From: Morchella semilibera
Taxonomy: Eukaryota > Ascomycota > Pezizomycetes > Pezizales > Morchellaceae
Assembly (NCBI GenBank): GCA_009192285.1
Contig: WBVU01000003.1
Span: forward strand, 558,001 to 622,000
DNA: 64,000 bases
Direction of reading: 5' to 3'
The notes under the pieces were generated by a model. That model did not search any database. It was not told the origin of the DNA and saw nothing but the letters and a program-made list of their open reading frames with translations. Shown here piece after piece: positions 1,882-36,450 of this stretch (positions within the stretch are counted from its first letter, which is position 1; every line of letters starts with the position of its first letter). A program made the translations under genes and the position numbers.

Positions 1882-2253
1882 CCTATTGTCAACCCTACGG
1901 TTTAGTTTCTTCTCGTCTCGTGTCTTTAGTTCCGAATATAATACGTCATAACCATAGTCTCCGCCAAGACCCTAGTGGGCCTTCCATAGTACCTCGTCTC
2001 GTCTTTGCTTCGCCTCGCCTCGCCTCGTCTTGCTTCGTCTCGCTTCGCCCATAGTCCATGACCGTAGTTCGTATCGTCTACTGGTATCTTCGTCTCCACG
2101 TCTTCGTCAGAGAGGCCATCTGGACCCTCTGCCCTACAACTCTGCTCCTCGGATAGATTCCCTCGTCCTCGTCTCTCGTCCTCGTCTTCGTTTCTGCTTC
2201 GGTTGTGTACCTCGGCCCTCTTGTCTGTTGTCTCCGTGTTGCTCCGTAACACT

Positions 2254-2264
2254 AAGAACACGTA
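2254..2264 (+). other. Candidate primer-binding site (self-priming type)
   Basis: AAGAACACGTA lies 2 nt after the 5' LTR end, where a primer-binding site is expected. I do not recognise it as complementary to a tRNA 3' end, and it pairs perfectly with LTR bases 1871-1881. Confidence 0.5.
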
Positions 2265-2313
2265 CCCTCCGCCGACCTACACAACGCCCCTGCCTCGCCT
2301 CGCTCCGGTCATA

Positions 2314-3276: not shown

Positions 3277-6200
3277 AAATTGGCACACCAAAGGGGCTAG
3301 TCCCGCCACCCACTTTTGTTCTTTCCGCTGCCGCCGTTTTCGAAGACAGAATGTCTGAGGAATCTCTTGTTGTTTCTTGCTCCGTTGCTCAAGATACCGC
3401 CGCCTCCATTGCTACCCATGCCCTGATAGATACAGGCGCTTCGGGCTATGCTTTTGTTGACCAAGGATTTGTCTTGCAGCATGGTCTTGTCCCGGTTCCC
3501 CTGAAGACATCACGCTTGCTCGAGGTAATCGACGGCAGGCTAGTGGAATCAGGGAAAATTACGCATATGATTAAGCTCTCTCTGGATATTAATGGACACC
3601 AGGAACTGGCCCCCTTTTTTGTTACAAAGCTGGGGCATTACCCATTAGTAATGGGTATTCCCTGGATGAGACATCATGACCTGGCTATCAGACCAAAGAC
3701 GAATAAGATCATCTTTGACTCTGACTTCTGCGTTCGGAACTGTTCCCGTTCCCATGTTCCGATTACGGCAAAAGGAATCTCAGTTTCGTTCCCCGATGCC
3801 CCGGCTATTCAGATCGCGGCCATTGGAGCTGCCCCTTTTGTAGGACTTGCTCGACGCCGGCAGAATAAACTCTTCTGTGCATCGATCCGTGCTATCGATG
3901 AAGTTCTTGCTGGAAAGACGAACCAGGACCCCTCAGCTCATGTACCCAAGGACCTCCAGGAGTTTATGTCATTATTCCAGGAAAGCCAAGCCACCGCCTT
4001 GCCACCGCACCGCCCTCATGATTTGAAAATAGTCTTGCAGGATGGAAAGGTTCCTCCGTTTGGCCCGCTATATGGCATGTCCCGTTTGGAGCTACAGGCC
4101 CTTAGGGATTATATTACGGAAAACCTGTCGAAAGGGTTTATCCGCTATTCCGAATCCCCCGCCGGCGCCCCAGTCCTGTTCGTAAAGAAATCTGACGGCT
4201 CCCTTCGATTATGCGTGGACTATAGGAAGCTTAATGAGATTACGGTCAAGAATCGCCATCCTCTTCCTTTGATTCCGGAAACATTGTCCCGCCTCTCCAA
4301 GGCGAAGTATTATACTAAGTTAAACCTCCGCTGGGGGTATCATCAAATTAGGATACAAGAGGGCGATGAGTGGAAAACGGCTTTTCGGACTCGCTATGGA
4401 CATTTCGAGTACAATGTGATGCCCTTTGGACTGACCAATGCTCCTGCTGCGTTCCAACACTGGATTAACGATCTTCTACGCCCCTATTTGGATAATTTCG
4501 CCACGGCATATCTCGATGATGTATTAATTTACTCCGAGACTCTGGAGGAGCATAAGCAACATGTTCGGGAGATTTTGAAAGTTTTCCAGATTCATGGTGT
4601 TCATCTCAAGCCTGAGAAGTGCGAGTTCTATGTGCAGCAGACCAAATACCTCGGATTGATTGTGACTCCGGAAGGCATCCAGATGGATCCTAGTAAAGTG
4701 TCGACGGTCAAGGATTGGGAAACACCCACCAGGCTTCGGGAGGTTCAAGAGTTCTTAGGCTTCGCAAATTTTTACCGACGGTTTATCTACGCCTACTCCC
4801 GAGTTGTGTCCCCGCTTACTGCCCTGACCAAGAAGAATGTAAAGTTCGAATGGTCCCAGAAGGCGCAGGAGGCATTTCAGAAGCTCAAGGACGCTTTTAC
4901 TTCGGCCCCGATTCTCGCCCACTTTGACTTTGAAAAAGAAGTTATTGTGGAAACCGACGCTTCAGACTATGTTTCCGCCGGTATTATGTCTCAGTACGGC
5001 GAGGATGGACTCCTACACCCCGTGGCTTTCTTCTCTAAGAAACACTCCCCAGCAGAATGCAATTACGAGATTTACGATAAGGAACTACTGGCAGTTGTTA
5101 GGAGTTTTGAGGAATGGCGCGCCAATTTGGAAGGGTCCCGTTTTCCTATCAAGGTACTAAGCGACCATAGGAATCTGGAATATTTTATGACTACGAAGCT
5201 ATTGAATCGTCGCCAAACCCGCTGGGCCGAGTTCTTATCGCGGTTTGATTTTGTTATTCAATTTCGACCAGGGAAACAAGGAGGGAAGCCGGATGCGCTT
5301 ACTAGGAGATTAAGGGATTTACCCAAGGAAGGAGACGAGCGTCTGACGCACCAGTCACAGGTGGTATTGAAACAGGAGAATTTGGGATCAAGGATTAAGC
5401 TAAGTTTGTTGGCGGGTTCTTTGACAAATGAACCCGCTGAAGGAATGCCCACCGTAAAGGAGTTGTTGATCCAAGCTTACCAAGAAGATAGTTTTCCCGA
5501 ACAAGTCCTGACGATGCTCCGCAATGGTAACAAACATTCTAAGAAAATTTCCCTTGCCGAATGTACCGAAACGGAAGATGGATTCCTTCTATATCGCCAG
5601 GCCATTTATGTCCCCGAGTTTAATGATCTTCAGCTTCGTTTACTGCAGGACCATCATGATAAGCCTTCTGCCGGACATCCGGGCCGCGCTAAGACCCTCG
5701 AACTCCTCAGCCGGAATTATTACTGGCCAAACATGAGGAAGTACGTCGATCGATATGTTCTGAATTGTAACGTGTGCTTCCGTAGCAAGGCTGCCCGCAA
5801 TGCCCTCCAAGGTGTTCTTCGACCTCTCGCTGTACCCAAAGGCCCATGGACCGATGTATCGATGGATTTTGTTACAGGACTCCCGGAAAGTAATGGTTTC
5901 AACGCGATCCTGGTGGTGGTTGACCGTCTAACGAAGATGCGTCATTTTATACCCTGCACCGAGGAAGCAAATGCCAGGGATGTTGCTACTATGTACCTCG
6001 ATTCGGTTTGGAAACTTCATGGACTCCCAGAAACTATTGTCTCGGACCGTGGCACACAGTTTACGGCCGAATTTTGGAAAGTTTTATGCTCCCGTCTTGA
6101 AATTGCCCCTCGCTATAGTACTGCATTTCACCCACAGACAGACGGGCAGACCGAGAGGATCAATGCTATTATGGAACAATATCTCCGAGCCTACGTCTCG

Positions 6201-6702
6201 TACCAACAGGACGATTGGACCCAGTACCTGTCAATGGCGGAGTTCGCAACCAACAACCATGTCTCCGAGACCACCAAAATGTCCCCGTTTCAGGCCAATT
6301 ATGGGAGGAGTCCCCGCATGTCCTTTGCCCCGCTACAGCATGGAAAGACAACCAATGAGGACCAGGCGAATGGTATGGCCAGGACTATGGCACAGGTTTA
6401 TGAGTTCCTTCGTGATGAAATGGCCCGGGCCCAGAAAATTTATGAGGAGGCAGCAAATAGGAATAGAACTCCCGCCCCTAGGTATGCTATCGGAGATGAA
6501 GTTTTTCTCTCAACTCGGAATATCGAGACCAAGCGACCCTCGAAGAAACTCGATTGGAAGCGTATTGGCCCCTATGTGATTAAGCGGATGGTTAGCCCCT
6601 ATGCTTATGAACTCGATCTCCCGGCGTCTATGAAAATTCACCCGGTGTTTCATGTCTCCCTTCTGTCTCTTGCCCCCAGCAACCCAGTTCCCGGTCAGCT
6701 AC
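3231..6702 (+). pseudogene. pol: Gypsy pol (protease, RT, RNase H, integrase), split by a transposon
   Basis: The frame is open from 3231, and no early ATG is present, which fits frameshift expression from gag. Domains in order, counting from TTG at 3270: retropepsin DTGASG (residue ~54); reverse transcriptase with FVKKSDGSLRLCVDYRKLN and catalytic YLDD (D416-D417); RNase H (TDAS, YDKELLAV, SDHRNLEYF); integrase with the HHCC zinc site, D..D..E (MDFVTGLP, SDRGTQF, TDGQTERIN); and a GPY/F module. The first RT aspartate (motif A, normally KLDLR) is Asn, codon AAC at 4323-4325, which should abolish polymerisation. At 6703 the frame runs into a DNA transposon. The remaining chromodomain is at 19888-20108 and joins in frame when the insert and one TSD are removed. 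The element is therefore doubly dead. Confidence 0.92.
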
Positions 6703-7029
6703 CATCAGCAAGCCTATTCAACCCTACCGGAGGCCCGGGAGGTGTGGGAGACGTTCGGAGACACCCGTCAAACTTTCGATCTCCAGGGGCTTACCCGCCC
6801 GTACGAGGGCCTCCTGAGCCTTTGCAGGAGCCTCCCGAGCCTTCAAGAAGGCTTAGCGGGCTCTCCTGATGCTAAGCGGCGCTCTCCTGGCGCCATCTGG
6901 AGGCTTTGTAATATTCTCTCCCAAGAGGCTGCGAGATATCGTAGACCTCCACACTAGTAGGAGGTTTTCGTTTAGAGAGGCTTCAGAGACGCTCTGTTAT
7001 AAGCCCAAGGATGAGTAGGGCGTTCTCGT

Positions 7030-7900
7030 GAGGGCTCCCCAAGCCCTCCTGCTATCTCCGGAGGATTAAGCGAGATCTCCCAAGCTCTCCTGTAATCCCT
7101 GCCAATCTCCTGGGCTCTCCTGAGGGCTCGCCAAGCCCTCCTGATATCTCCGGAGACTGCTGATGATTAAGCGAAACCTCCCAAGCTCTCCTGTGATCCC
7201 TGCCAATCTCCGGAGACAACTGATGATTAAGCGAAACCTCCCAAGCTCTCCCGTAATCCCTGTCAATCTCCTGGGCTCTCCTGAGGGCTCGCCAAGCCCT
7301 CCTGATATCTCCGGAGACTACTGATGATTAAGCGAAACCTCCCAAGCTCTCCCGTAATCCCTGCCAATCTCCTGGGCTCTCCTGAGGGCTCGCCAAGCCC
7401 TCCTGATATCTCCGGAGACTACTGATGATTAAGCGAAACCTCCCAAGCTCTCCTGTAATCCCTGTCAATCTCCTGGGCTCTCCTGAGGGCTCGCCAAGCC
7501 CTCCTGATATCTCCGGAGACTACTGATGATTAAGCGAAACCTCCCAAGCTCTCCCGTAATCCCTGCCAATCTCCTGGGCTCTCCTGAGGGCTCGCCAAGC
7601 CCTCCTGATATCTCCGGAGACTACTGATGATTAAGCGAAACCTCCCAAGCTCTCCTGTAATCCCTGTCAATCTCCTGGGCTCTCCTGAGGGCTCGCCAAG
7701 CCCTCCTGATATCTCCGGAGACTGCTGATGATTAAGCGAAACCTCCCAAGCTCTCCTGTAATCCCTGTCAATCTCCTGGGCTCTCCTGAGGGTTTCCCAA
7801 GCCCTCCTGATATCTCCGGAGACTCTTGAAGATTAAGCCAGATCTCCCATGCTCTCCTGTAATCCCTGCCTATCTCCTGGGCTCTCCCAATATCTCCGAG
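7030..7900. repeat. About eight ~101-bp tandem repeats in the KDZ left subterminal region
   Basis: The unit contains GATGATTAAGCGAAACCTCC, CCTGATATCTCCGGAGAC and CTCCTGAGGGCTCGCCAAGC. It recurs at a period near 101 bp from about 7060 to 7830, with one shortened copy of about 59 bp. A single inverted unit lies at about 12440-12530. There are no unique spacers, so this is not a CRISPR array. Such subterminal repeats are often transposase-binding sites. Confidence 0.85.
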
Positions 7901-8065
7901 GACTTTCAAACTATTACTAATCTACTGATACCTCAAAATCCACTTTGATTATTCATACCATACATAAAAATAGGAGTCCTCCCCCAAAATCACATATCCA
8001 CCGTCGAGGCGGGAGGAGGCTCTTGAAATGCCTCTCCCGCCTTCGCCATGCCCACGTCCCCCAAA

Positions 8066-23640: not shown

Positions 23641-24213
23641 AAGCTACAGAGTGGCTTTGCATGTATGGTTGCGCAGGTATGGTTGTGTGGGTTTGATTGG
23701 GGCGAGGGTGATGTGAGACCCCGTTGCAAGGTGAAGGTATGGTGCAAGAAGGAGTAGAGGGCGACTTTGACAACCCTGTACACACCACTTTAACCAATTC
23801 TTTCATTGGCTCTGGGAAGCAAAGATTGAAGAGCCTCCCCTTGAGCTCGACTCAATAGCCGCCAGAGCCAATAAGGTATTACACTGAACTGGTGTAAACA
23901 GTTGACAACCTCGCCCTCCAAGCCTTCTCGCACCATACATAAAATATCAACAGACTTAAAAAATTTGGCGAGTAGTTGCTTGGAGCGCTTGCGTTCGCGT
24001 GGGGGACCCCCTGAGCGAAGGATTCAACGAGCGGTAGCGAGGCGACAGCCACACGTAGCAAAACAGTAATAATTCAATAAAAAATTTTAAAAATCCACTT
24101 TTTTAATAATAAAAAACAAGTAAACTATCCTGCGCCGTATCATCCAACCCTCCTAGTCTAGTACAAACTGCTAGAGCAAAAAAAAAAAACCACTGTAACT
24201 ATACAACCCCGTA
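23641..24213. other. Spacer downstream of R1, with palindrome
   Basis: No gene seen. GGGGGACCCCC at 24001-24011, followed by GAGCGGTAGCGAGGCGACAG, matches the GC-rich spacers between the other island genes. The stretch 24060-24200 is AT-rich. Confidence 0.6.
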
Positions 24214-24985
24214 CTACAGCTTAGTTTCCTCAGTTACTTCCCCGCCTCCAGTAATATGCAACTTCGTACGGAGGGTGCTATAATCGTGCATCACGCGAAC
24301 CCCATGAAAATAACAAAAATCGGCACCGAGTATGTTGACATCGTGATAGTGGGACGACGGCCGAGATCTTCGAAAGGGGCTTGGATATCCACCGATCGTT
24401 GCAATAGCTGCCATATGGGGATCATGATCATTGACCTTGATCTTAAGCGCCTCAAATGCCTGGAGCCGTTAGAACCCACAAAAAGACTTGCCTTCAAATA
24501 CTCACTTGGGTTGACAAGAATGTCCATGGAGACCCACTATCCACAATAAAGAAAACCCAGCGAGATTGCTTCCGATAGCTAACAACAAGCGGAACTATCG
24601 GCCTCCTATTAGGGCCGTAGATGTAACCATCGCTCACTGAAACAGCTTTATTGGTATCAGCAGTTGCCTCTGAAAGGTAGGCAATACCTATTTCGTCTGA
24701 AATCGTTTGCATCAGCGTGTCGTGGGTAATATCTTCCTCCGGGGTTATATCATGAATATCGGTAGATCCGCCACGCTTTAAAATTTCCTGTTCGCGCTTT
24801 TGAGCAAAATAGACCTGTGGATCGACCTGCGAAGAAGAGAACCGTTGAGCGATCGTCTCGTAACTCGGGGGCCCGGAATACGGAGCTTGCATGCTATGGA
24901 TCCGGCGTGATGCAGTATTGCTGGAGAGGAGAAGGCCGGGCCTGGGAACAGCCTTGACTGCTTGCCGGCTGAGGAGCCTGAACAT
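24214..24985 (-). CDS. R1: retropepsin-like protein with mitochondrial-type leader
   Basis: Two exons, 24985-24506 and 24459-24214 (donor GTGAGT, acceptor CCAG), give 241 aa. The N-terminus MFRLLSRQAVKAVPRPGLLL is basic, lacks acidic residues and resembles a mitochondrial presequence. A central region (YSGPPSYETIAQRF, IHDITPEEDI) is shared with R2 and R3. The sequence WVFFIVDSGSPWTFLS carries a D-S-G catalytic-type loop, and exon 2 holds VNILGADF, like the hydrophobic-ILG-x-D motif that pairs with it in single-domain retropepsins. Retropepsins work as dimers. That this is an active protease is inference. It is the last gene of a minus-strand run S2-R2-S1-R1 and has a GC-rich spacer on each side. 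Intact. Confidence 0.75.
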
Positions 24986-25027
24986 CTTTGTCCGGGTTAG
25001 TCTGTGTCGTGTTGCTCTGTTCTGCAA

Positions 25028-25345
25028 TCGCGTTGAGGGTGAAAGACTTCCCTCTTATTCAAACTATTCTGTGCGCTACGCCACAGAGCTCGTGCCAGAA
25101 CCTCGCCAAGACTACACGTGCCGGTCCGGAGCTAATCCCTGCATCCGGAACGTTCTTGGAACGCTTGCACGGTTCACACTACGCCGCTGGCTACGTGTGG
25201 CTGCCGCCTCGCTACCGCTCGTTGATACGCCGCCTTACGAGTCATAATACCACAGCATACAGCATACAGCATATATACATTCAACTACCAACCTCATTGC
25301 AACCAGGCCCCCCCCTCCGCTCCGCCCAGGGGTCCCCCTTCAACA
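25028..25345 (-). repeat. GC-rich island spacer between S1 and R1
   Basis: In gene direction it runs GGGGACCCC (25329-25338), GAGCGGTAGCGAGGCGGCAG, TTCCGGATGCAGGG and TGTGGCGTAGCGC, then R1. The same blocks occur in the same order at 26040-26406, 33930-34120 and 34842-35160. Confidence 0.7.
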
Positions 25346-25592
25346 TAGGGGAAATAAAGCTCGTAAAACAAGAAGTCAAATTATCTGCTCCAACAAGGCA
25401 GAAGCCAATTATTATACAAACAAAAAGTAATAGCCAGCCGATTAGTATTCAAGTAAAAAAGAGTTCGATGCGCCAAACCATTCTAAAGCCCCGCCAACAC
25501 CGCGAAAAAAACAAAAAGAAACTCCTAAACCACCTTTCCCTCACCCTTGAGTTCAGCCCTTAAATCTTGCTTCCTGATCGTCAAGCTTCTTA

Positions 25593-26004
25593 TTAAATTA
25601 ATTTCCTGATCGTCTTCTTTCCGAGCCTAGTCTCCATCGCAGTGTCAAAGTAAAACTTTGCTCCAAACTGGTACATTCGTCAATGTAAGGGCTGATAGAA
25701 AGAGGCCACTTGTTTCTTACCGACGCGAAAACGAACCCTTCCAGCCCACTTGAGCAACGCTTTGATCTCGCTGAAACCTGATTCCACATTCTCACAAACA
25801 ATTAGATAGAAAATTTAATAAAGTCGTTCTTTGAACAACCGTCAAGGGACCTTCCTTTCCCTCAATGTCCTTCCCGTAACCCGTTGCCCCATCTATTGCC
25901 TCCTCCGAGCCGTGTTCGACGGCGTAGCGGCGGTGGATCGGGTGTCCAAGCGAAGGGATCCTCGAGATCGCACGAGGAGCAGCTCTAATGGCAGGTTTGC
26001 TCAA
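25593..26004 (-). pseudogene. S1: small protein with basic leader, one apparent frameshift
   Basis: Exon 1 starts at 26004 (MSKPAIRAAPRAISRIPSLG), another presequence-like leader. An intron probably ends near 25790. The next exon reads ESGFSEIKALLKWAG, and with one base less would continue GFVFAS. A 50-nt intron (GTAAGA..ACCAG) leads to FGAKFYFDTAMETRLGKK and a stop at 25593-25595. The order coiled coil, short hydrophobic stretch, charged tail resembles CCDC90/DUF1640 mitochondrial proteins, but similarity is weak. The extra A in GCTGGAAGGG (about 25737) may be a mutation or a read error. Confidence 0.4.
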
Positions 26005-26039
26005 AAACGTGGATAATTATCGGTGGCCTCCCCACTCAG

Positions 26040-26406
26040 TTGCTTGAGGATTATTGGATGAGAGAAAGAGGATGGTGATTTGGTTCTAGTGAGCGTGCTC
26101 TCTCACTTCGCCTTCTTGTGTGTCTTCATGTCACGTGTCCGACAGTAACTACATCGCATGGCAACTGTCATTGACAAGCTTAGGCCTGCGCCACATCTCT
26201 ATGTCATCGTTCCGCCAAGGCAGACTTGCAGCGTTCCGGACTGATCCCTGCATTCGGAAGTTGCTGCTTCGCGCCACGGTCACTTAGCTCCCCTACCGCC
26301 CGCGCTGCTGGGCTTTCACTCCGCTCTAGCTACTTTCACACTCGGCTCTCGCCTCGCCCATCGCCTCGCTCCGCTCGTTGAGGACTTCGTTCGGGGGGGG
26401 TCCCCC
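26040..26406 (-). repeat. GC-rich island spacer between R2 and S1
   Basis: In gene direction: GGGGGACCCCC (26396-26406), AACGAGCGGAGCGAGGCG, GCCCAGCAGCGCGGGCGG, TGACCGTGGCGCGAAGCAGC, GGAACGCTGCAAGTC, CTTGGCGGAACGATGACA and GATGTGGCGCAGG. This is the fullest copy of the spacer. Confidence 0.75.
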
Positions 26407-26547
26407 AATAAAATAGTAGAATGACTTTGCAAAAACTAAAAGTACATACAAACTCAAAAGAAATCGTAATACAATTACATTTTTTCGAACTGCCAAAGAA
26501 AAATCATCCCTCCACTCGTCTCGTCCGCTTGTCGCCTGCTCGCAGAC

Positions 26548-27345
26548 CTACAGCTTTGACTTCTTAACCATTTCCCAGTCTGCACCAAAGTACAATTTTG
26601 CTCTGGCCTTCCTGAAGTCATTCACTTGAGAAACGTCATAGAAATTAAAAAAGTCCATGCCGAGAATATTAAGTTCCGTAAAAGAATGGTCGGTCGGCGA
26701 CCTATAAACTGGGTGGTAACGACCAGCGATCTTGACACGAGCCGGTCCAATTCTGTCTTCCTGAATATCAAAGAGGTCACTCGTCTTGACTAACTAGTTA
26801 GCAAGCCTTCTTTTTACACAAGCGTACGTCTAAGCACTTACCTGAGTGGAAATGTATGTCAATGGAGCCCCAGAGTCTACGATGAAAAAAACCCAATGGG
26901 CCCTAACATCATCACAAACAACTGCTGGAAATATCGTCCGCAGCTTACGCCCGAAGAGATAGCAATCACCGATGTCTACCACCTTACTGGCTTCTTCCAC
27001 AGTCGCTTCTGCAAGGTACTTTATGCCCACTATCTCGGCAATTTCCCCTCGTAATTTCTCCTTGTCAACATCCGAAATAAATACATCATAATCCCTCGGA
27101 TCCACACCTCCGATATCATGGATATCAGTATATTCGCCACGCTCTTTAGCCGCTTGTTGACGCTTGTTGATGAAATAGGCCTGGGGGTCGACGTTCGGGG
27201 GGGAAAAGCGTCGAGAGATCGTTTCGTAACTCGGGGGACCACTGTACGGGAGCTGCAAGTTGTGGATCCGGCGTGAGGTAGCGGTAGATAACCGAAAAGG
27301 TCTGGGAACAGCCTTGACTGCTTGCTTGCTGAGGAACCTGAGCAT
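26548..27345 (-). CDS. R2: retropepsin-like protein with mitochondrial-type leader
   Basis: Exons 27345-26842 and 26793-26548 (donor GTAAGT, branch GCTAAC, acceptor TAG) encode 249 aa without interruption. It is a paralog of R1: leader MLRFLSKQAVKAVPRPFRL, shared YSGPPSYETISRRF and YTDIHDIGG, active-site-like WVFFIVDSGAPLTYIS and C-terminal ELNILGMDFF, ending WEMVKKSKL. Its exon 2 is exactly as long as that of R1 (246 bp). I chose the ATG at 27345 because it aligns with the R1 and R3 starts; the frame is open further upstream. The promoter region contains the shared TATAAGTAGGGGAGTA block, which carries a 96-bp palindromic insertion. Confidence 0.75.
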
Positions 27346-27570
27346 CTTTTTGTCCCCGTTACTCTGTTCCTGTGAATTTCGCAGGTCGGTCTTCAATACT
27401 CTAGCCAGCCAGAGAGATAATGTGACATTAAACAGACTCACCTGGTCGTTGTCGAATCTTTGGTCTTCGGGTACTCTCGTCGTGTCGCTCGTACATATTC
27501 TTGTCCGATCGCTGGTTGCTGAATCGAAAGATTGAGGTTTTGGAGGATTTCTGAACCAAGTGCGGGGATA

Positions 27571-27666
27571 GACCGTGTGCACCTGTGGCGAGCATCTTAT
27601 CTGACCTCTAAGGATGACCTTTATTATGTGGATTAGATAAGATGCTCGGCACAGGTGCACACGGTC
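27571..27666. mobile_element. 96-bp palindromic MITE with TA duplication
   Basis: Two ~30-bp arms starting GACCGTGTGCACCTGTG, with a ~32-bp loop, are flanked by TA (27569-27570, 27667-27668). The uninterrupted sequence GCGGGGATACTCCCCTAC exists at about 28705-28722, so the empty site is known. TA target and palindrome fit a Tc1/mariner-dependent MITE. Confidence 0.8.
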
Positions 27667-27735
27667 TACTCCCCTACTTATAGACAAAACGCGACCGTGG
27701 CCAAGCCTCACGGCGCTCAAGGACGGGTTCGACAA
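27667..27735 (-). promoter_or_regulatory. Shared promoter block upstream of R2
   Basis: In gene direction: GGCTTGGCCACGGTCGCGTT, TTGTCTATAAGTAGGGGAGTA. The same block precedes the HNH gene (33765-33835) and, shortened, R3 (35125-35160). TATAAGTA may be the TATA element. Role inferred from position and conservation. Confidence 0.5.
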
Positions 27736-28109
27736 CGAAGAAATGGACCTTCACGGAAATAGTTCCTCCATCACCACAGGAGGGGGAAAAATCCCAAAGA
27801 GATTGAAAATTGTATTGGTCATCAACAATAAAGACTTAAAATTATTTGAGAAGATATTTAGGTAAGCCTATGTCTAAAGTGCTATATTCCTGAGCCATGC
27901 CTTAATCAATTATGTGGTGGTGGAGGAATTATTCTTGTGGGGGTGGTTGCCATGGAGTGGAAATGATTGGGGTACCATAAGTCTATGGGGTCCCGAGATA
28001 TCAAGATGCCCTTTCCAGAGCTGCTAGGTAACACTTGCCTAACAAACTCCGTTTTCAACACAAACGCCAGTAACCACCATCTAATCAAAGTAAAACAACA
28101 CGACCACAA
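27736..28109. other. Spacer between S2 and R2
   Basis: No gene or spacer repeat recognised apart from a weak GGGGTCCC at about 27988. The sequence is of average composition. Confidence 0.5.
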
Positions 28110-28690
28110 TCACTTCTGAATCTTCATCTGATCCAAGTTGAGCAGAATTCTGTCCTCCGAAGCGCGGACCTCCTTCGCTATCTCTATCTTGATTTCGCTC
28201 TTGATAGTTTCAGATGCCTTGATTAACGTTTTCACTGTCTCCAGCATATCGTCCTTCATTTTCCCATTGTAATAAAGCGTTTCTCCTGTAAACTTGTTGA
28301 TGTCAGCGGAAATAAATTATGAGACGACGCCCTGTAAAACCTACTGCTCCTACACCTAGCAAGACCGTTCCCGCACCGAAAGTGAGAAATTTCCACATAA
28401 GATTGGTCAGATTGGTGTTCATATTCCTCATCTGTTCGGACAAGGTTGCAGTGCTGACTTTAAGGTCCGTTTCGAGTTTGAGAATTCTCCCTTGAACCGT
28501 GTTATCCGCAGGAAAGGTGAAGTTCGTCCATACTTCTCATCTACTGAGCCAATTAATATCTGAATGGGATGTCACTGACAGAGAAAACTTGCCTGACTGC
28601 GGCTAAACCCTCTGCATGGATGGCATGATGAAGTGCTAAAATCCAAGTCGCTGATATTTGTCGCTTCGCTATCGTACTCCCGTAGATACT
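28110..28690 (-). CDS. S2: small coiled-coil/membrane protein, partly resolved
   Basis: The clear part reads TVQGRILKLETDLKVSTATL..MRNMNTNLTNLMWKFLTFGAGTVLLGVGAVGF: a short coiled coil and one hydrophobic segment. After an intron of about 60 nt (ending TTTACAG) it continues LYYNGKMKDDMLETVKTLIK..RASEDRILLNLDQMKIQK, stop at 28110-28112. A first exon (..ATWILALHHAIHAEGLAAV) may join through an AG|GCAAGT (GC-AG) intron near 28545-28594. I see no certain ATG. The architecture parallels S1. The function is unknown. Confidence 0.4.
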
Positions 28691-29076
28691 TGTCACTTCT
28701 CAACTAAGTGCGGGGATACTCCCCTACTTATCCCTTAGTCTGTCATTGCTGACCCCCCTACAATAGAGGAATTGAATTTGTATGGAGGATCTATTATTTG
28801 ATAAGGGAGATAGCGGGATCTGTTAGTAAAGCGACACAAAATTTGCTTATGTCACGAAAGAGTGTCACAACACGTGGAGGTATATACAGTTGGTCACAAC
28901 GCACTATATATGGCGCGAGAAGCTATAGGGGGCGGGTGTGTCAACTTTGGTCAAAAAAATTGTGATTGGGCCGCTATGTCAGCTCAGGGTAAGGGTTTCT
29001 GATGTGCAAACGCGGCAATGGATATTTGCGGAAGCAAAGATGGCCCTTGATTTCTCGACCATGAGTTACAGCAAAG

Positions 29077-31095
29077 ATGCCAGTAAAAGAATATAGTATT
29101 CGTACCGGAAAGCCAATTAGTCGTCAAGCAGTCTGGAAGAGAAACAAACTTGCTAGGGAGAAAGCGAAGCAGCTCAACACTCCGAGTCAAGAAGCTATCG
29201 AAAAATGGCTATTAGCACCGGGTCTTCAAACAGATATGGAAATGCGAGGCAAAATACTTGAAGCAGGTATTTAATTAATGAAGATTTACTCTAATTCTTT
29301 TGTCCGCTAATATATTTAGCATTGTTTGACATAAAAAAACTTCTTAAGTCATCGAAATGCCCGAAAGGTCAAGATTATACCCGACATCTACAAGTTCAAT
29401 GTTTTATCAATCTTCAATTGAAAAGACCGGTTGCTTTTTCTTCAGCCAATACCAGGGAAAAGCTAGCTTTGCAGGTTGCAAATTCATTTAATGGGGGCTG
29501 TAAGCTTGCGAGTTTTATTTTACAGAGAGAAAGAAGCTGGGTCAGAAAACGGTAAGCAAACTACCAAACTCTACTATCCCTATATATATACTAATAATAA
29601 TTGAAGATATATTCAACCCGGATTACAAGGCAAAACATCCTCGGCTCAATCAATGCTAGAAGATGAAGGTACTTTAATAGCTGCCCGAGAATATATTGCC
29701 CGAGCTGGTCAACAAATTACAGCACAAAATCTTGCCGATGCTGTAGTGGAATATTGGAAAAAATCATTGTTAGAGAGTGGGATCGATGTTTCAGGATATT
29801 CGGAGGAAATAAATATCATGCAAGAGACAATTTTAGCTCTAAAGGATATCGATTTAGATGAGACTAAATGGTCTTTATCTAGTCGATCAGCAGTTAAATG
29901 GTTGCACCGGCTAGGGTATGATTGGAAGGAGGTTCGAAAGGGTATATACAAAGATGGACATGAAAGAGAAGACGTAATCGATTATCGGCAAAATACCTTC
30001 TTACCACAGTTGGAAATTTTGAAACCACGATTATTACAATGGGATGAAAATGGAAATTATTTGCGTACTCCAGCAGAGATAAGAGCAGCTACTGGAGAGG
30101 CTCCGTGTGTACTAGTTACGCATGATGAATGCACCTTCCATTCCAATGAAGGGCCTACACACCAATGGGTAAAAAGTGATAGTCAACCTCTAAGGAAGAA
30201 AGATTTGGGCAAAGGAATTATGTTATCGGGCTTTCTTACTCCATTATCCACTCTTCGAGCACCAGATTATATGTCAGATCTTGAGTTGGAAAGATTAGGT
30301 CTCCGTCGCGATGCGATGGAGATGATTGAATGTGGGGGTGATATTTGGTGGGATAGCGAGAAATTATTACAACAACTTACCGATTATGCGATACCAATTT
30401 TTGAATTGGCTTTCCCAGGTAGTCAAGCAGTCTTCCTTTTTGATAACGCTCCATCACATCATGCATTAGCTAAAGATGCACTGAAAGCATTATCGATGAA
30501 TATGAGGCCCGGTGGAAAAGCTCCAAATATGCGAGACGGTTGGTTTATTGATCCTAAAAACGGCAACCGAGTCAAACAATCACTCAATTTCTCTAAAGAT
30601 GACTCGACAATTCCTGAAACATGGCGGGGTAAACCAAAAGGATTAAAGATAATTTTACAAGAGCGTGGGTTGTCGACTGAAAGTTTGAAGCGGAAATGTA
30701 AGAGTGGGTGTGATGGAGCATGTTGTGCGGAGAGTCTTATGGCAAATCAACCTGACTTCAAAGAACAAATTAGTAAAGTTCAACAATTAATAACTGATCG
30801 AGGTCATTTGGCTATTATATACCCGAAGTTTCATTGCGAGTTAAATTGGATTGAATATTTTTGGTGCGCTGCTAAATGGCATACTAGAAAAAATTGTACA
30901 TATTCACTTTCTGCATTACGGACGAATATACCTAAAGGGTTAGAGCACGCAAGGAAATCTATTTGGAAATATTGGAGGAAGTCAAACGATATCATGGAAG
31001 CTTATCGGGCTGGATTTGGATGGGGTTCGCACAGCCAAAAACGATACAAAAGTCATAGGCGGGTGCAAATGACGGGTTTTTTAAGTTCCGCCTAA
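29077..31095 (+). CDS. DDE transposase of the Tc1/mariner-like element
   Basis: Exons 29077-29266, 29320-29551 and 29607-31095 (introns of 53 and 55 nt, GT..AG, phases match) encode 636 aa. The N-terminus is basic, with a helix-turn-helix-like region (ISRQAVWKRNKLAREKAKQL and the second exon). The catalytic core has VTHDECTFHSNEG (D), VFLFDNAPSHHA (D) and FHCELNWIEYFW (E), the D..D..E pattern of the IS630-Tc1-mariner group, although N-W-I-E replaces the usual N-P-I-E. A long insert with a CKSGCDGACC cysteine cluster lies between the second D and the E. No stop or frameshift is visible, so activity is possible. Confidence 0.85.
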
Positions 31096-31116
31096 AATAC
31101 TATAGAATATCTATTG

Positions 31117-31795
31117 CTAATTTTTGGAATCCCATTCTGCCATTTTTTCATCAACCAATCTGTCAAAAGTTTCCTCTGAAAACTCCCCTGCTCTCTTTAA
31201 ATTCCTCTCAATTTTCCTTTTTGCTGCCCCTTTAGCTGATGCCCGCTTCGCTTTCCTAGCATTCCTCATTCTCCAATTTTTTGAAGCAATTCTCTCAAGT
31301 TTTTTTTTCCTCTCCGCTATTAATAGTTAGTCTTAATCCATATTGACAGCAACAATAAACATACCGGAAGGTTTCTTCCTTTTTCTTATTTCCTTAAGAG
31401 CATCTCTTGCCTCTTGGTGTTTTGAATCTTTGGAAGAGAAATGTTGAAGATGTTGCCAAACAGCTATATGAGAATCTGGCCGATGACTGAAATCCTTCAA
31501 ACATGCTGGACACTCAAAGAATTTTGACCCCCAATCCTTCCACTGTTCATACGGGTTTTCTGGAACTTCATCAGCAAACTCAACTTCTGACTGGAGTCTC
31601 CCAACAGTCTCCTGAGTCTCCTGAGAGTCTCCTGTGACCCCTTAATATTTTTTAAGTCTCATGAGGCTCAGGAGACATCAGGAGACAAATGAAGTCTTGC
31701 TGATGTTCTGGAGCGGATTCTGCAGATTTTAAAGGTTTCTTTCTAATTCTTCCTGTAGCTGTGTAGCCATAAGGGGCAGGGTCTGGTGTTGGCAT
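31117..31795 (-). pseudogene. Second gene of the mariner-like element, interrupted by a MITE
   Basis: Starting at 31795 (MPTPDPAPYGYTATGRIRKK), the frame is cut after ..ESAPE by the MITE at 31569-31705 and continues in frame after removing it and one TT: ..NPYEQWKDWGSKFFECPACL..H..H, a C2H2-like finger (CPACLKDFSHRPDSHIAVWQ followed by H). A 48-nt intron (31317-31364, GTATGT..AATAG) leads to a strongly basic tail (ERKKKLERIASKNWRMRNAR..). It is convergent with the transposase gene, 21 bp apart. The role is unknown; DNA binding is a fair guess. Confidence 0.65.
31569..31705 (-). mobile_element. 137-bp MITE (CATCAGCAA family), copy 3
   Basis: Inverted orientation, TT duplicated at 31567-31568 and 31706-31707, inserted into the second gene of the mariner-like element. 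Confidence 0.88.
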
Positions 31796-32062
31796 TTTCT
31801 TGATAGTTGCTGGTGGTAGGCGAAGGTGGTTGATAGGGAAGGCGCAGGTGGTTGAGGGGAAAAGGAGGAAATAGCAGTGATGAACGCAAATATGATTTGC
31901 ATATAAAGTGATGAACGGGAATATGATTTGCACAAAGCTGAGTTTAGCGAGGCAACTTGCAACCCTAACCACCACACCCAACCCTAACCCGCCCCTAACC
32001 CGTGCGCCCCACACCAAATCCTCCGAAGTTGACACACCCACCCCCTATAGCTTCGCGCGCCA

Positions 32063-32743
32063 TAGTTACTCGGAACTTGTACCTTAACTCTACAGACACT
32101 CGGGGAATAAAAGTTTTGCCATAACACCGTTGTATGACCTCTGCAGTGGATCTGCACTGCCACCTGGTGCCAGATGTTCCGCCAAGCCGAACATGCAGCG
32201 TTCCTGCATCCGGAACGTTCAAGGATTACTGCGTGCGTTCCAGAATTCTAGGTTACAAGAATGTCGCATGCAGGGAAACCTTATGGCGTAAACAAAACCT
32301 AACCCCAAACCCGCCAAAAAAAAAAAGTGTCGCAACCGAACTGTATAGGGTGCCCAGGAGGCAGGAGACAGGCAGGGAACAGTGACTCTCATATGTGGAG
32401 AGGAGAATTTGATCCGTTACGCAGTGAGGAGCTTAAAGACAATGAAGCCTAAGAAAAGTCTGTGGAGTGATGTGATCCTCCTATTCTCAAGTCTTGGCAA
32501 AGGAAGAGGGATGAATCTTACCTGGAGCTTCGCCCAGGTCTTTAGTTGCGGAACGCTTGCGTTCTCCGCTACTTCGTGGCTCTCGCTCCCCACGCCGCTC
32601 ACATGCCTACCGGCATCTGTCGCCCCGCTACCGCTCGCTGACGGCTACGCCCCCTCCTCCGCTTCGCTCAGGGGGTCCCCCTCTTTTCATGATAACTTAT
32701 AATACATCAATAATAATTACATTTTTACAAAGCAAGTAACTCC
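32063..32743 (-). repeat. GC-rich island spacer downstream of the HNH gene
   Basis: In gene direction GGGGGACCCCC (32671-32681) is followed by GAGCGAAGCGGAGG, GAGCGGTAGCGGGGCGACAG and CAACTAAAGACCTGGGCGAAG. At 32220-32150 come TTCCGGATGCAGGAACGCTG and CTTGGCGGAACATCTGGCAC. The parts match the other spacers. No gene convinced me in the middle. Confidence 0.6.
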
Positions 32744-33725
32744 TCAGACAACCCCTCGCAATCTCGACGCAACCTCCATCTCCAACCTTTCTTGCGCGTA
32801 CGGTCCTTCTCGAATCTCTCCCATCATGTCTGTACCCGGTGGAAAATCATGCTCGAAGATAGGTTCTCCTGCACCTCTCATATTCGCAAGCACCGACTGA
32901 CGGAAGTGCCACCTGAGAAGCTGATCGGACACACGCTGCGGATTTGCAGGATCGCGACAGACGGGATCGAGAGTTCTACCGTCGAAGCCGTCAAGATCAA
33001 TATCAAACACTGTGGTCTTGTAGTTATCCTTTTGCAAGTCAGTGTGAATCAATAAAGCTGCGGACCGAGAGAAAACTCACATCCGGATTCACCGCAATAA
33101 GGTATTGATCAAACCGTGAATGAATATGCTCGCGAAGAAGAAGGCCATTCTGCAACGAGTTTATCTTTGAGGCTCCATTTGTGTTGTCCATATCCGTAAT
33201 CCACTGACCGTAATTGTTCTCGATCCAGTAACTTTCACTCCCAAGAGGAAAGATATGAGCTGCTTCGAAGCTGGTCCACTGAGCTCGAAAAGCCGCCCGG
33301 TTCACGACGCCTGAGATAACGCATTTGCCATCGCGAGCACGGATTCCATCGCGAAAGGCATCTTCCCGGCCCGACACAGCGTGCGAGATGAGGCGATGCA
33401 CCCATGGTTCATCACTGACCTCAATACGACCTGTTTTTAAAGTTAGCGAGTGATTGAAACTCCCACTCAGCGAGCACCTACTGTCGCAATAAACATCATA
33501 CTCTCCTGGTTGCAGCGCGTTGTCCGTTCCCGCTACGACATGGCCTGAAGTTCTTTCCTGAATGCGTAGAGGAGTCACCGTGGCAAGTAGGATCCCGAGC
33601 ATCTCGATAAAATTCGTTTCCGTGACCGACCCATTCTGGATGAGTCCGCCCAAAGCGACGCTGGGCTTTGAAGCGTCGTAAAAGTGCACATTGCGGCCGA
33701 GAGAACGGTCGATACATGTAGGCAT
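32744..33725 (-). CDS. HNH endonuclease (fungal HNH_2 type)
   Basis: Exons 33725-33081 and 33028-32744 (donor GTGAGT, acceptor AAAAG) encode 309 aa without interruption. The central domain reads DGKCVISGVVN, SFEAAHIFPLGSESYWIE, SLQNGLLLREHIHSRFDQYL and, in exon 2, GRTLDPVCRDPANPQRVSDQ and LLRWHFRQSVLANMRGAGEP. These are the hallmarks of the HNH_2 family (PF13391) common in filamentous fungi: an AAH histidine, a conserved N in the middle, and a second histidine. The presumed activity is metal-dependent DNA cleavage; the biological target is unknown. I chose the ATG at 33725, although the frame is open upstream into the promoter repeat. Gene X is divergent from it, 505 bp away. Confidence 0.85.
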
Positions 33726-33759
33726 TGAGTGACGTCTGTGCTGTATCCGTCTATCGGGT

Positions 33760-33920
33760 GGTGGGGATACTCCCCTACTTCCCCTGCTAATAGACAAAAC
33801 GCGACCGTGGCCAAGCCTCACGCTACCCGTTGTTTTAACCCTGCGCCACATCTCTGTGTCCAAGGTTCCACCAGGCCGAACATGCAGCGTTCCTGCATCC
33901 GGAACGTGCGTCCCGCGTTC
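33760..33920 (-). promoter_or_regulatory. Shared promoter/spacer block upstream of the HNH gene
   Basis: In gene direction: CCGGATGCAGGAACGCTGC, GATGTGGCGCAGGG, TAGCGTGAGGCTTGGCCACG, GTCGCGTTTTGTCTATTAGC, AGTAGGGGAGTATCCCC. These blocks match those upstream of R2 and R3. Confidence 0.6.
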
Positions 33921-33929
33921 CAGCAACTC

Positions 33930-34120
33930 TCAACGAGCGGAGCGAGGCGATAGACGAGAGCCCAGCAGCGCGGGTGGTGGGGGGAGCGGAGTGACCGTGG
34001 CGCGAAGCAGCCACTTTCCAGCACCTTCTGGATGCAGGGGTCAGTCCGGAAAGCTGCAAGTGAAGCTTGACACGGAGACGTGGCGCAGCACTAGACTTGG
34101 CCAAGAGGCAACATAGCATC
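33930..34120 (+). repeat. GC-rich island spacer upstream of gene X
   Basis: AACGAGCGGAGCGAGGCGAT, GCCCAGCAGCGCGGGTGG, GACCGTGGCGCGAAGCAGCC, TTCTGGATGCAGGGGTCAG and GACGTGGCGCAG occur in this order, now pointing rightward, as a divergent copy of the HNH promoter spacer. Confidence 0.7.
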
Positions 34121-34230
34121 TTAGCTAGATAAAAAAGGCAATGGAAAGAGCAGGCGTCCCCATTTATTTAAAGTACTTCTTCACATCTTAAGAGAGTGCG
34201 TTATACGTAAAAGAGAAAAACTTCTGTATC

Positions 34231-34750
34231 ATGCCTCCTCGCAAACAAGAAACGACGGAAAAGGTCATCAAGAAGAACCAGGAGTTAGTTTCACCAGTGG
34301 AAAGTCAAGATGATTGGATGAAATGCGATGCGATACTGGTTACCCGGTCGGAACTCGGAGAGGAAGAAGAAATGAGGCGGGGCGCCAAAGATGCACTTGA
34401 GCAGGCACTGAATGAAGCCCTTCACGTCGAAGAAGTTCGTGACGATGTGTTCGTCGGCAATCGTCGTGGCCTCGGCCTAGCCGGTTTACCGGCACGAGTT
34501 CGTGCTAACTTTTACAGATCACAAGCCGACCATCGACACTTTGAACGCTCATGCGGGGGTAATCGCCTCAAAGCACCAAACCGGCAGTGACGAATTTTAC
34601 AAGCGGTTCGCAAAGTTTGTTGAGCTCTTCGAGGGGTCGGATTATGATGAGGGTTATTTGGAGGGGAACCCGACGGATGTGACTCAAGCGTACTGGTCGT
34701 TTCTAAACTGTATCAAGAATGAAGTTACCAGGGTTGATGCGATGCCGTAG
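34231..34750 (+). CDS. Gene X: unknown 146-aa protein
   Basis: Exon 1 (34231-34438) encodes a charged N-terminus MPPRKQETTEKVIKKNQELV. An intron of about 79 nt ends at GCTAACTTTTACAG (34517), and exon 2 (34518-34750) gives HKPTIDTLNAHAGVIASKHQ..FYKRFAKFVELFEG..EVTRVDAMP. The acceptor and branch are convincing. The donor (CGTGACG) is weak and was chosen by phase, so exon 1 may end a little later. No known domain is recognised. It lies between GC-rich spacers in the rightward run X-R3, with the palindrome GGGGGACCCCC 92 bp after its stop. Confidence 0.55.
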
Positions 34751-34841
34751 AGGCTAGTGATTAGATGAAGTTTTTTCCTTTGTTTCGGTGAATAGACGGT
34801 TTGTATTTTTTACCAAACATATTGATTTTACTATGTATCAA

Positions 34842-35160
34842 GGGGGACCCCCCGAGCTGCTCGTGCGGCCGAGTTTTAACTGAATCACATGACCTGTGAA
34901 CCAACACCACGTGATTTAGTTAGAATTCGGGGACGAAGTCCTCAACGGGCGGGGCGGGTGCCGGGCGTGGACGTAGCGGGAGCGGAGTGAGAGCCCAGCA
35001 GCCTGGGCAACTAAAGACCTGGGCGAAGCACCTTCTGGATGCAGGGACCAGCCCGGAACGCTGCAGGTGAGCCTTGGCGGAACGATGACACCGAGATGTG
35101 GCGCAGAGGTAAAACAACGGGTAGCGTGAGGCTTGGCCACGGTCGCGTTTTGTAGTAGCC
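34842..35160 (+). repeat. GC-rich island spacer between X and R3
   Basis: GGGGGACCCCC (34842-34852), then GGAGCGGAGTGAGAGCCCAG, TTCTGGATGCAGGGACCAG, CTTGGCGGAACGATGACA, GATGTGGCGCAGAGG and GGCTTGGCCACGGTCGCG, the same order as in the leftward spacers. Confidence 0.75.
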
Positions 35161-35246
35161 TCACTCAACCCCCACAATTTGATCAAACACGCCGCGACAC
35201 GAACGACAAGGTGAGTCCGTTTAATATCAAATTATCTGGAACAAAG

Positions 35247-35987
35247 ATGTTTAGGCTCCTCAACCGGCAAGCAGTCAAAACTGTTCGCAGACCCGGTCTT
35301 GTTCTCTCCAGCGGTACCACCACATCACGCCATGTCCATAAACCTGATCCACTGGCCTATTTCAGTGAAAAGCGCCAGCAAGAAGCCCTCCAGCGTGGCG
35401 AATTTACCGACATCCACGATATCCCCCCAGAGGGTGGCTTCTATCCAGATGAATACGATCTCTTGCTCACGGATATTTCTCACGAAACGCTAGAGCACAG
35501 GATTTCAGAAGAATTCGGCATTGCCTGCCTACCTTTCCGAGGCAACTGATGAGGCCAAGAAACCGGTTTCAATGTGTGATGGCTACATCTTCGGCCGTAA
35601 CAAAAGATCGATGATTGCACTTGTTGTTACCTATGGGGAGCAATCTCGCTGGGTTTTCTTTGTCGTGGATACTGGGTCTCCATGGACATATATTTCACGC
35701 CAAGTGAGTACTAAGGTAGCTGTTTTGGTGGGTTCTAACAGGTTTAGGCCAGTGAGAAATTTGGGCTCGACTGGAATCCTGAAGAGGCAGCTCTTGCAAT
35801 GATTGGTGGACATGTATCCCCAATTCATTTGTCTCCGCCATCCTCCCGCTTTGCGGATGTCAACGTACTCGGTACCGATCCTTGTGAATTCCAGCATGCC
35901 TCCATGTGGCATGATTATACGAGGCGCCGTGTTAAGCTGTTCATTGGTGGAGCGTGGAAGGTGGTGGCGGACGGGTCCAAGTTGTAG
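35247..35987 (+). pseudogene. R3: retropepsin-like paralog with a 4-bp duplication
   Basis: Exon 1 (35247-35703) and exon 2 (35748-35987) follow R1 and R2: leader MFRLLNRQAVKTVRRPGLVL, EFTDIHDIPPEGG, active-site-like WVFFVVDTGSPWTYIS and VNVLGTDPCEFQ. The segment that carries YSGPPSYETI in the paralogs is missing. After FGIA the bases GCCT occur twice (about 35523-35530), which shifts the frame to an early stop. With one copy the frame continues into YLSEATDEAKKPV. R3 is transcribed away from R1 and R2, on the other side of the HNH gene. Confidence 0.7.
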
Positions 35988-36450
35988 TTCGGGTTTTGTG
36001 GTGCACGTAAGACTGGAGGAATTGGGATCGGTTTCTTCCCCCCGGCATCTACTATCGATTTGTGTACACTTGGCGCGTTACCCTACCCGCAGCCAGGTAT
36101 CACAGCAACCCGGAACACGTATATCACAGGCCTACAGGGCAATGGGTTTAACTGGCGGAAATGGGAATTGGGGGGGGCGGAGGACGGGGGGGGGGGGGCC
36201 GAAGGCCCCCATCTACTATCTACTATGTACCGGGTGTGCACCTAAGATACCGAGACGCTTGGATTGATAGGCCGATTTACTATGGTGCCACGAGTGGCTC
36301 CGGTACAGGAGCCAATAGCAAGTGACGCCGAGCTAGCAATTTGTATGAGGGAAAGCGAGACATCCCCATGAAGTCCAAGCCACACCTATCCGTGAAGCTC
36401 ACGCCCACGAACAGGTGTTCCAAACCACGAACACCTACAATAATTATCTA
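35988..36450. other. Spacer after R3
   Basis: No gene seen. A G-run (GGGGGGCGGAGGACGGGGGG, about 36172-36198) is present. An inverted AGGTGTTC / GAACACCT pair lies near 36410-36435, next to the Tc1 relic. Confidence 0.4.

What the first reader, a model, noticed from the sequence alone, without database searches (positions are those of the whole stretch)
24000..35990. Cassette-like island of small, mitochondrial-type genes separated by homologous spacers
Seen: seven small genes (S2, R2, S1, R1 and HNH leftward; X and R3 rightward) lie in two divergent runs. Between R2/S1, S1/R1, HNH/X and X/R3 the spacers share the same blocks in the same order relative to transcription (GGGGGACCCCC, GAGCGGAGCGAGGCG, CCGGATGCAGGG, GTGGCGCAG, CTTGGCCACGGTCGCG). 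Paralogs occur on both sides of the divergence point. Inference: the unit gene plus spacer has been copied as a block, possibly by recombination between spacers, like a eukaryotic gene-cassette array that mixes a nuclease, protease-like proteins and small membrane proteins. I know no described system of this layout.
Basis: partly seen in the sequence, partly recalled or inferred. Interest (0 to 1): 0.86.

Follow-up and report, generated by a model that had tools for sequence, protein, structure and literature searches.

The report
Fungal genes sharing interchangeable gene flanks
In a cup-fungus genome, several unrelated small genes carry the same start and end sequences, singly or in rows, and the flanks do not follow the kind of gene, which suggests that genes and flanks have been copied and swapped as units.

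Summary
Nuclear DNA of an unnamed fungus, probably a Pezizomycete. The spacers are truly homologous (best pair 133 bits; best of 100 shuffles 33.7). S1, X and R3 are broken; S2 was not identified.

A spacer is the 3' block of one gene (A, GGGGGACCCCCTGAGCGNAGCG, about 50-150 bp after the stop) followed by 5' blocks of the next (C, then D with TATAAG). Single units with C before and A after the gene occur elsewhere, around R (C14, C15) and X (C2). Pattern A with at most 2 mismatches has 8 hits in the genome, all at such units; one was new, behind a coiled-coil gene. Block C similarity does not follow gene type (0.585 same, 0.637 different; 9 units, confounded by location). R copies keep their intron.

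Best reading: units of unrelated genes that share promoter and 3' end, spread by DNA duplication and reshuffled by recombination in the shared blocks. Against it: 16 of 18 other HNH loci lack the blocks, block C averages only about 0.6 identity, and most pattern hits are not independent of how the patterns were made. Expression, function and other species' DNA were not testable. No inverted ends were seen; an integrase was not searched for.

The parts
32744..33725 (-). HNH gene: DUF7881 + HNH_2, two exons (about 33725-33081 and 33028-32744), open
   Evidence: Pfam PF25324 E 2e-24 and PF13391 E 5e-17, both above cut-off; exon limits read by eye
33726..33930 (-). 5' flank of HNH: block C 33831-33909, block D about 33768-33822
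   Evidence: model R1 E 3e-18 (in the training set); motif scan
32640..32692 (-). 3' block A of HNH, beginning 52 bp after its stop
   Evidence: exact hit of the genome-wide pattern; model R2 E 2e-11 (in the training set)
32480..32640 (-). spacer behind HNH, with block B (GAACGCAAGCGTTCCGCAACTAAAGACC)
   Evidence: matches C2:2478761 and C19:2555869
32150..32222 (-). block C of the next unit, cut off from its gene by the transposon
   Evidence: model R1 E 5e-15 (in the training set)
28911..32064 (.). probable DDE transposon inserted in the spacer; transposase ORF 29653-31095; inverted ends of about 38 bp
   Evidence: ends read by eye; Pfam DDE_3 only E 0.05, below cut-off
28110..28620 (-). small coiled-coil membrane protein gene (S-type), limits uncertain; D-like TATAAGTAGGGGAGTATCCCC with one mismatch at 28717-28732
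   Evidence: translation, by eye; D motif
27660..27735 (-). block D of R1 (CTTGGCCACGGTCGCG, TATAAGTAGGGGAGTA)
   Evidence: 94% over 48 bp to the HNH flank
26548..27345 (-). R1, two exons (27345-26842, about 26784-26548), open
   Evidence: 235 of 246 residues identical to metagenomic P0007; dN/dS 0.19-0.26 to three paralogues over exon 1
26361..26413 (-). block A behind R1
   Evidence: model R2 E 4.5e-5 (in the training set)
26176..26266 (-). block C of the S1 unit
   Evidence: model R1 E 3e-23 (in the training set)
25410..26020 (-). S1, degenerate, limits approximate: mitochondrial-like first part without ATG, coiled-coil-like second part
   Evidence: by eye; first part only here in the genome at E <= 1; second part similar to C19:2558699-2558818
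25290..25350 (-). block A behind S1
   Evidence: model R2 E 2e-8 (in the training set)
25066..25200 (-). junction J (GTAGCCAGCGGCGTAGTGTGAAC) and block C of the R2 unit
   Evidence: training set; J with 3 mismatches
24214..24985 (-). R2, two exons (24985-24506, 24459-24214), open
24000..24059 (+). block A pointing towards R2's 3' end (inverted)
   Evidence: training set
33925..34110 (+). 5' flank of X: block C 34017-34098
   Evidence: model R1 E 2e-17 (in the training set)
34231..34750 (+). X, shortened relative to its homologues
34832..34868 (+). block A behind X
   Evidence: model R2 E 2e-4 (in the training set)
34860..34930 (.). dispersed 70-bp element inserted in the X/R3 spacer; not part of the unit
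   Evidence: 13 other places, whole or in part,
34931..35165 (+). 5' flank of R3: block C 35026-35116, block D about 35121-35153
   Evidence: model R1 E 3e-24 (in the training set)
35247..35987 (+). R3, two exons (35247-35703, 35748-35987), with a 4-bp frameshift near 35525; no block A reported behind it

Best explanation
The island is an array of gene units. A unit is: a shared upstream region (block B in some copies, block C, core promoter D with TATAAG in some, a 5' leader in R-type units), one of at least four unrelated genes (R; HNH; X; small coiled-coil membrane S-type), and a shared 3' block A, in some copies with a tail J. A spacer is A (and J) of one unit followed by C and D of the next. 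Units were copied as DNA, locally into arrays (the window's island C19a, a decayed second island C19b, perhaps C2a) and singly to unlinked loci, and homologous recombination or gene conversion in the shared blocks gave genes new flanks and made chimeras. The likely consequence is that unrelated genes share promoter and 3'-end signals. Shown: the shared blocks, their position around single genes, few copies away from such genes, kept introns, flank similarity that does not follow gene type. Inferred: recombination as the agent, co-expression, any function of the proteins.
For: Spacer homology beyond shuffles. A pattern, genome-wide: 11 hits at up to 3 mismatches, reversed-pattern control 2; the 8 hits with at most 2 mismatches all lie at unit loci (neighbourhoods). 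A stricter form at up to 1 mismatch: 4 of 4 hits at R or HNH loci, control 0. Single units: X at C2:2479112 with B-C before and A-J after it; R at C14 and C15 with C before and A after. A new S-type locus found by the A pattern alone. Intron kept at the same place in four dispersed R copies, read by eye. dS 1.0-3.0 and dN/dS 0.11-0.26 between four R copies, while the best spacer pairs of unrelated genes are 78-88% identical over 100-174 bp. Block C identity: same-type 0.585 (8 pairs), different-type 0.637 (28 pairs); 4464 of 5000 label shuffles at or above the observed difference. Chimeras in C19b: R-like leader and N-terminus on an S-type tail; R-like leader, coiled coil and HNH C-terminus (my reading).
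Against: Only 2 of 18 other HNH loci and 4 (1 more weak) of 10 other R loci carry a block, so the genes do not need it. C20 has block C behind a truncated R, not before it, so it is no clean unit. Patterns and models were made from known copies, so most hits are not independent; new are C2:2055113, a weak A at C3 (E 0.014) and C1:7240807, where no unit was recognised. Over its whole length block C is only 0.43-0.84 identical between copies. The gene-type test is small (9 units) and confounded: units of the window resemble each other and most same-type pairs span loci. Several genes are broken and C19b is fragments. No second species' DNA was available.
Confidence: 0.65

Rival explanations
1. 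The spacer is a short non-autonomous transposable element (mimp-like MITE) that inserts beside certain genes, so the genes share it by insertion.
For: Short modular GC-rich sequence; a dispersed element is nested in one spacer; one C-like copy has no recognised gene (C1:7240807); a fungal precedent, mimp in effector promoters (abstract of PMC3599309).
Against: At single units the two halves lie on opposite sides of the gene; apart from C1 no gene-free copy among the hits that I looked at (three A hits with 3 mismatches were not looked at); no terminal inverted repeats seen in the C2 unit (by eye).
Confidence: 0.13
2. A regulon: the blocks are conserved by selection as promoter and terminator signals, without exchange between units.
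For: D holds TATAAG; C holds TTCCGGA...TCCGGAA-like inverted repeats; A sits 3' of stops behind an A/T-rich stretch.
Against: Similarity runs over up to 174 bp with indels; chimeric genes need recombination; a regulon does not explain J and B or the array junctions. It may be true in addition.
Confidence: 0.13
3. A true cassette-exchange system in which an encoded nuclease (HNH) or an unknown recombinase cuts the spacer and moves units.
For: An open HNH gene lies in the array; a J-B join is seen twice in C19b and, less exactly, in S1/R2, and the single C2 unit has AGGGTGA / AGGGGTGA at its two ends.
Against: 16 of 18 other HNH loci have no block within the 1.5 kb held; the end repeat is one case; folding of 8 spacer pieces is ordinary except one at z -2.95. 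The genome was not searched for an integrase.
Confidence: 0.05
4. Ordinary tandem gene duplication plus chance likeness of GC-rich DNA.
For: R paralogues are duplicates; the spacer pieces are 58-65% GC.
Against: Shuffles reach 33.7 bits, observed 133; unrelated genes share both flanks at unlinked loci.
Confidence: 0.03

Closest known systems
mimp elements in promoters of SIX effector genes, Fusarium oxysporum (PMC3599309, abstract read)
   Same: one short repeat upstream of many genes of one fungus, usable to find new members
   Different: mimp is a MITE; here there is a second shared block 3' of the genes and hardly any gene-free copy was found
VSG cassettes of Trypanosoma brucei with 70-bp repeats (starts of abstracts in the search listing)
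   Same: genes exchanged by homologous recombination in conserved flanks
   Different: VSGs are one family using an expression site (partly recalled); here the genes are unrelated and no expression site is known
Integron gene cassettes of bacteria (recalled)
   Same: unrelated small genes, each with a conserved flank, in arrays
   Different: no integrase known here, no attC-like fold shown; units seem to carry their own promoter
DUF7881 + HNH_2 fungal proteins (Pfam PF25324, PF13391)
   Same: the HNH gene has both domains; the family is wide in ascomycetes
   Different: most members in this genome have no shared block nearby

Membership tests
MITE / mimp-like element | terminal inverted repeats | tested here: not met
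   none seen at the ends of the C2 unit (by eye only); none in the spacers among the 25 of 135 inverted pairs shown, minimum 40 bp
MITE / mimp-like element | many copies away from the genes | tested here: not met
   A pattern, at most 2 mismatches: 8 of 8 at unit loci; C pattern: 4 of 5; the searches score only best candidates
Retroposed gene copies | intron loss | tested here: not met
   intron kept in the R copies of C14, C15, C23 and C3 (read by eye)
Integron-type cassette system | site-specific recombinase | not tested
   none among the few proteins scanned; the genome was not searched for one
Integron-type cassette system | constant recombination site | tested here: inconclusive
   similar J-B join at 3 array junctions and a 7-bp end likeness at one single unit
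VSG-like cassette exchange | conserved 5' and 3' flanks usable for recombination | tested here: met
   their use in recombination is inferred
VSG-like cassette exchange | one active expression site at a time | not testable with these tools
   no RNA data
DUF7881-HNH_2 proteins | both Pfam domains above cut-off | tested here: met
   86 and 61.9 bits against 27 and 21
Retropepsin-like proteases (gene R) | Pfam aspartyl protease domain above cut-off | tested here: not met
   7 of 13 members match PF13975 at E <= 0.1, best E 0.0038, below cut-off; hhalign to the window's own Gypsy protease stretch found nothing, with a shallow profile
Retropepsin-like proteases (gene R) | catalytic D-[ST]-G | tested here: inconclusive
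   present in R1, R2, R3 but altered in some relatives
Mitochondrial proteins (gene R) | import presequence | not tested
   by-eye reading of MFRLLSRQAVKAVPRP only

The most novel reading that the evidence does not exclude
A eukaryotic gene-cassette system: unrelated genes with constant ends are excised, moved and re-joined at a fixed junction (GGCGTAGGGTGAAC), driven by an enzyme encoded in the array such as the HNH nuclease, so that a fungus keeps reshuffling small genes under one regulatory flank.
Probability: 0.06. Interest if true: 0.92.

Novelty: new variant of a known kind. Interest (0 to 1): 0.62.

Why it matters
Flank sharing by unrelated genes on both sides, at single and arrayed units, would show a route by which small fungal genes get ready-made promoters and 3' ends and are mixed into chimeras.

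Tried and rejected
Chance GC-rich likeness: rejected by shuffles; the GC-rich control from the same window was unclean and is reported as such. Common dispersed transposon: rejected except for the 70-bp element at 34860-34930. Hairpin-driven breakage: GCGNAGC mini-hairpins are more frequent in the spacers (11 observed; mean 2.1, maximum 6 in 200 first-order Markov sets), but 7 of 8 spacer pieces fold no better than z -2, so it was dropped as a general mechanism. S1 as a decayed R exon: first thought, dropped after the C19b match showed a coiled-coil S-type tail. Viral or prokaryotic origin of the blocks: two patterns had no match in IMG/VR contigs; one had 2 single matches in prokaryote genomes, not followed. 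R protein in viral contigs: no relative. Rfam and tRNA scans of the window: nothing. C19:843445 shares only a repeat with the 5' part of S1. C1:7240807: C-like match (model E 1e-4) without a recognised unit; the locus also shares about 190 bp (66%, E 2e-11) with C19b and a shorter stretch with C20:3382k, probably a dispersed repeat. Structure of R: never obtained. Paper searches: nothing on such an array among the listed titles and abstract starts; empty; this library holds only open-licence papers.
Full report
Setting. The nearest named relatives of its R, HNH and X proteins are in Pezizomycetes such as Morchella, Sphaerosporella, Kalaharituber, Wilcoxina and Choiromyces, so I take it to be a fungus of that class. 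Named R relatives are in Pezizomycetes and Geoglossum (40 proteins, most unnamed), named X relatives in Pezizomycetes (14 proteins); HNH is wider in ascomycetes, for example Lipomyces and Penicillium (765 proteins, 120 listed).

Observation. The named spacers are homologous: 78% over 174 bp (E 2e-33), 88% over 100 bp (E 1e-30) and weaker pairs. In 100 dinucleotide shuffles the best pair reached 33.7 bits, against 133 observed. The same call's second control, GC-rich pieces from elsewhere in the window, has a median of 22 bits but a tail above 284, so it is no clean null. The blocks are not all in all spacers.

What a spacer is. Two parts can be told apart. Block A (GGGGGACCCCCTGAGCGNAGCG, behind an A/T-rich stretch) lies 3' of genes, about 50-150 bp after the stop where the stop is known; block C (GAACGTTCCGGATGCAGGG...CCGGAACGCTGCA...GATGTGGCGCAG) and, in some units, block D (CTTGGCCACGGTCGCGTTTTGTCTATAAGTAGGGGAGTA) lie 5' of genes. 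In an array, A of one gene is followed by C and D of the next. The HNH/X spacer is two 5' regions head to head and has no A. The A block at 24000 is inverted relative to R2, and none was reported behind R3.

Single units. R at C15 has C before it and A after it; R at C14 has A after it and a weaker C before it. An X relative at C2:2479112 has B and C before it and A and J after it; the match to the other loci ends at AGGGTGA on the left and AGGGGTGA on the right, the place where J and B are joined in the arrays of C19b. This 7-bp likeness is one case. C20 is different: an R-like leader and a truncated R with block C behind it.

Genome-wide census. Five DNA searches with spacer pieces gave, outside the window and the query's own place, block matches at C20:805582, at C19:2555869-2561490 (a second island, C19b, with broken HNH and R pieces) and at C2:2478741, all beside R, HNH or X relatives; the other outside matches are 13 copies, whole or in part, of a 70-bp dispersed element and two at C19:843445-843601 that belong to a repeat in the 5' part of S1. 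Pattern A with up to 3 mismatches gave 11 hits, the reversed control 2 (their mismatches are not shown); the 8 hits with at most 2 mismatches are all at unit loci, and the 3 hits with 3 mismatches were not looked at. One of the 8, C2:2055113, was new and lies behind a gene that I read as a small coiled-coil membrane protein, and is followed by a stretch like the region before R of C15 (86% over 44 bp). Pattern C with up to 3 mismatches gave 5 hits, control 0: two at C15 (one of them inverted behind R), two in the window, and C1:7240807, where no unit was recognised. The search tool scores only its best candidates, so these counts are lower bounds.

How many relatives have the blocks. Models of C and A were run over the window and 46 held loci, 208,681 bases with some overlap. 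Of 18 HNH loci outside the window (24 rows, five of them second copies on C10 or C22, one the window itself) 2 have block A (C23:216k, C19b). Of 10 R loci outside the window (three of them weak matches, E 0.16-0.32; the second copy on C10 left out), 4 have a block (C14, C15, C20, C19b) and C3 has a weak A (E 0.014). Of 13 loci held for other reasons (L011-L019, L025-L027, L087) none has one. The loci reach about 1.5 kb to each side. The models were built from 12 known copies each, so hits on those are by construction; L095 (A, E 1e-9), L041 (A, E 0.014) and L092 (C, E 1e-4) are not in the training sets.

Copying and exchange. R copies on C14, C15, C23 and C3 keep an intron at the same place, by my reading, so they are not retrocopies. 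Between R1, R2 and the R copies of C14 and C23 dS is 1.0-3.0 and dN/dS 0.11-0.26 over exon 1: old, and under purifying selection. The best spacer pairs of unrelated genes keep 78-88%, but over the whole of block C identity is 0.43-0.84, about the level of R coding DNA as a whole (0.61-0.74), though above its synonymous sites (pS 0.55-0.74). In block C, same-type pairs average 0.585 identity (8 pairs) and different-type pairs 0.637 (28 pairs); 4464 of 5000 label shuffles were at or above the observed difference (9 of 12 units had a gene type assigned, 3 were left out). So flank similarity does not follow gene type in this small set; units of the window tend to be alike, and most same-type pairs span loci, so location and type are confounded and local conversion may be part of it. 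In C19b an R-like leader and N-terminus precede an S-type coiled-coil tail, and an R-like leader precedes a coiled coil and the C-terminus of HNH (my reading of the translations).

State of the genes. R1 is open and 235 of 246 residues match a metagenomic protein. R2 and HNH are open. R3 has a 4-bp frameshift, S1 lacks a start, X lacks the middle part of its homologues (by eye). R resembles retropepsins only below Pfam's cut-off (7 of 13 members) and its D-[ST]-G is not constant, so 'protease-like' is a lead. The mitochondrial presequence was judged by eye.

Their flanks could not be seen.

Mechanism. I commit to DNA duplication of units with later homologous exchange in the shared blocks. A cassette system with its own enzyme is the bold alternative: an HNH gene is in the array and the J-B join recurs, but HNH relatives mostly have no block nearby, spacer folding is ordinary in 7 of 8 pieces, and I did not search the genome for an integrase.

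Comparison. The nearest parallels are mimp elements at effector promoters (abstract of PMC3599309) and trypanosome VSG cassettes (search listing); as far as I know neither has unrelated genes with shared blocks on both sides at single and arrayed units. The paper searches listed no description of such an array; the library is open-licence only.

Noticed in passing
window 28911-32064: Probable DDE transposon with about 38-bp inverted ends ATGGCGCG(A/C)GAAGCTATAGGGGG(C/T)GGGTGTGTCAACTT and a 480-aa transposase ORF, inserted in the spacer between HNH and the next unit.
   Followed up: partly
window 34860-34930: Dispersed 70-bp element with 13 further places, whole or in part, in the genome.
   Followed up: partly
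window 27564-27674: Foldback repeat inserted in the 5' region of R1.
   Followed up: no
window 2203-6869: Gypsy-type retroelement ORFs (my reading of the translation).
   Followed up: no
window 6944-8010: Tandem array with a period of mostly 101 bp.
   Followed up: no
window 58337-62892: Large ORFs on the minus strand that read like a Rho GTPase exchange factor of the Rom2 kind (by eye).
   Followed up: no
G000 contigs C9/C10 and C21/C22: The same HNH matches occur at nearly the same places on both contigs of each pair, as if two versions of one chromosome were assembled.
   Followed up: no
C1:7240807-7240828 (L092): Block C match with 2 mismatches and no recognised gene nearby; the locus shares a further stretch with C19b, probably a dispersed repeat.
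   Followed up: partly
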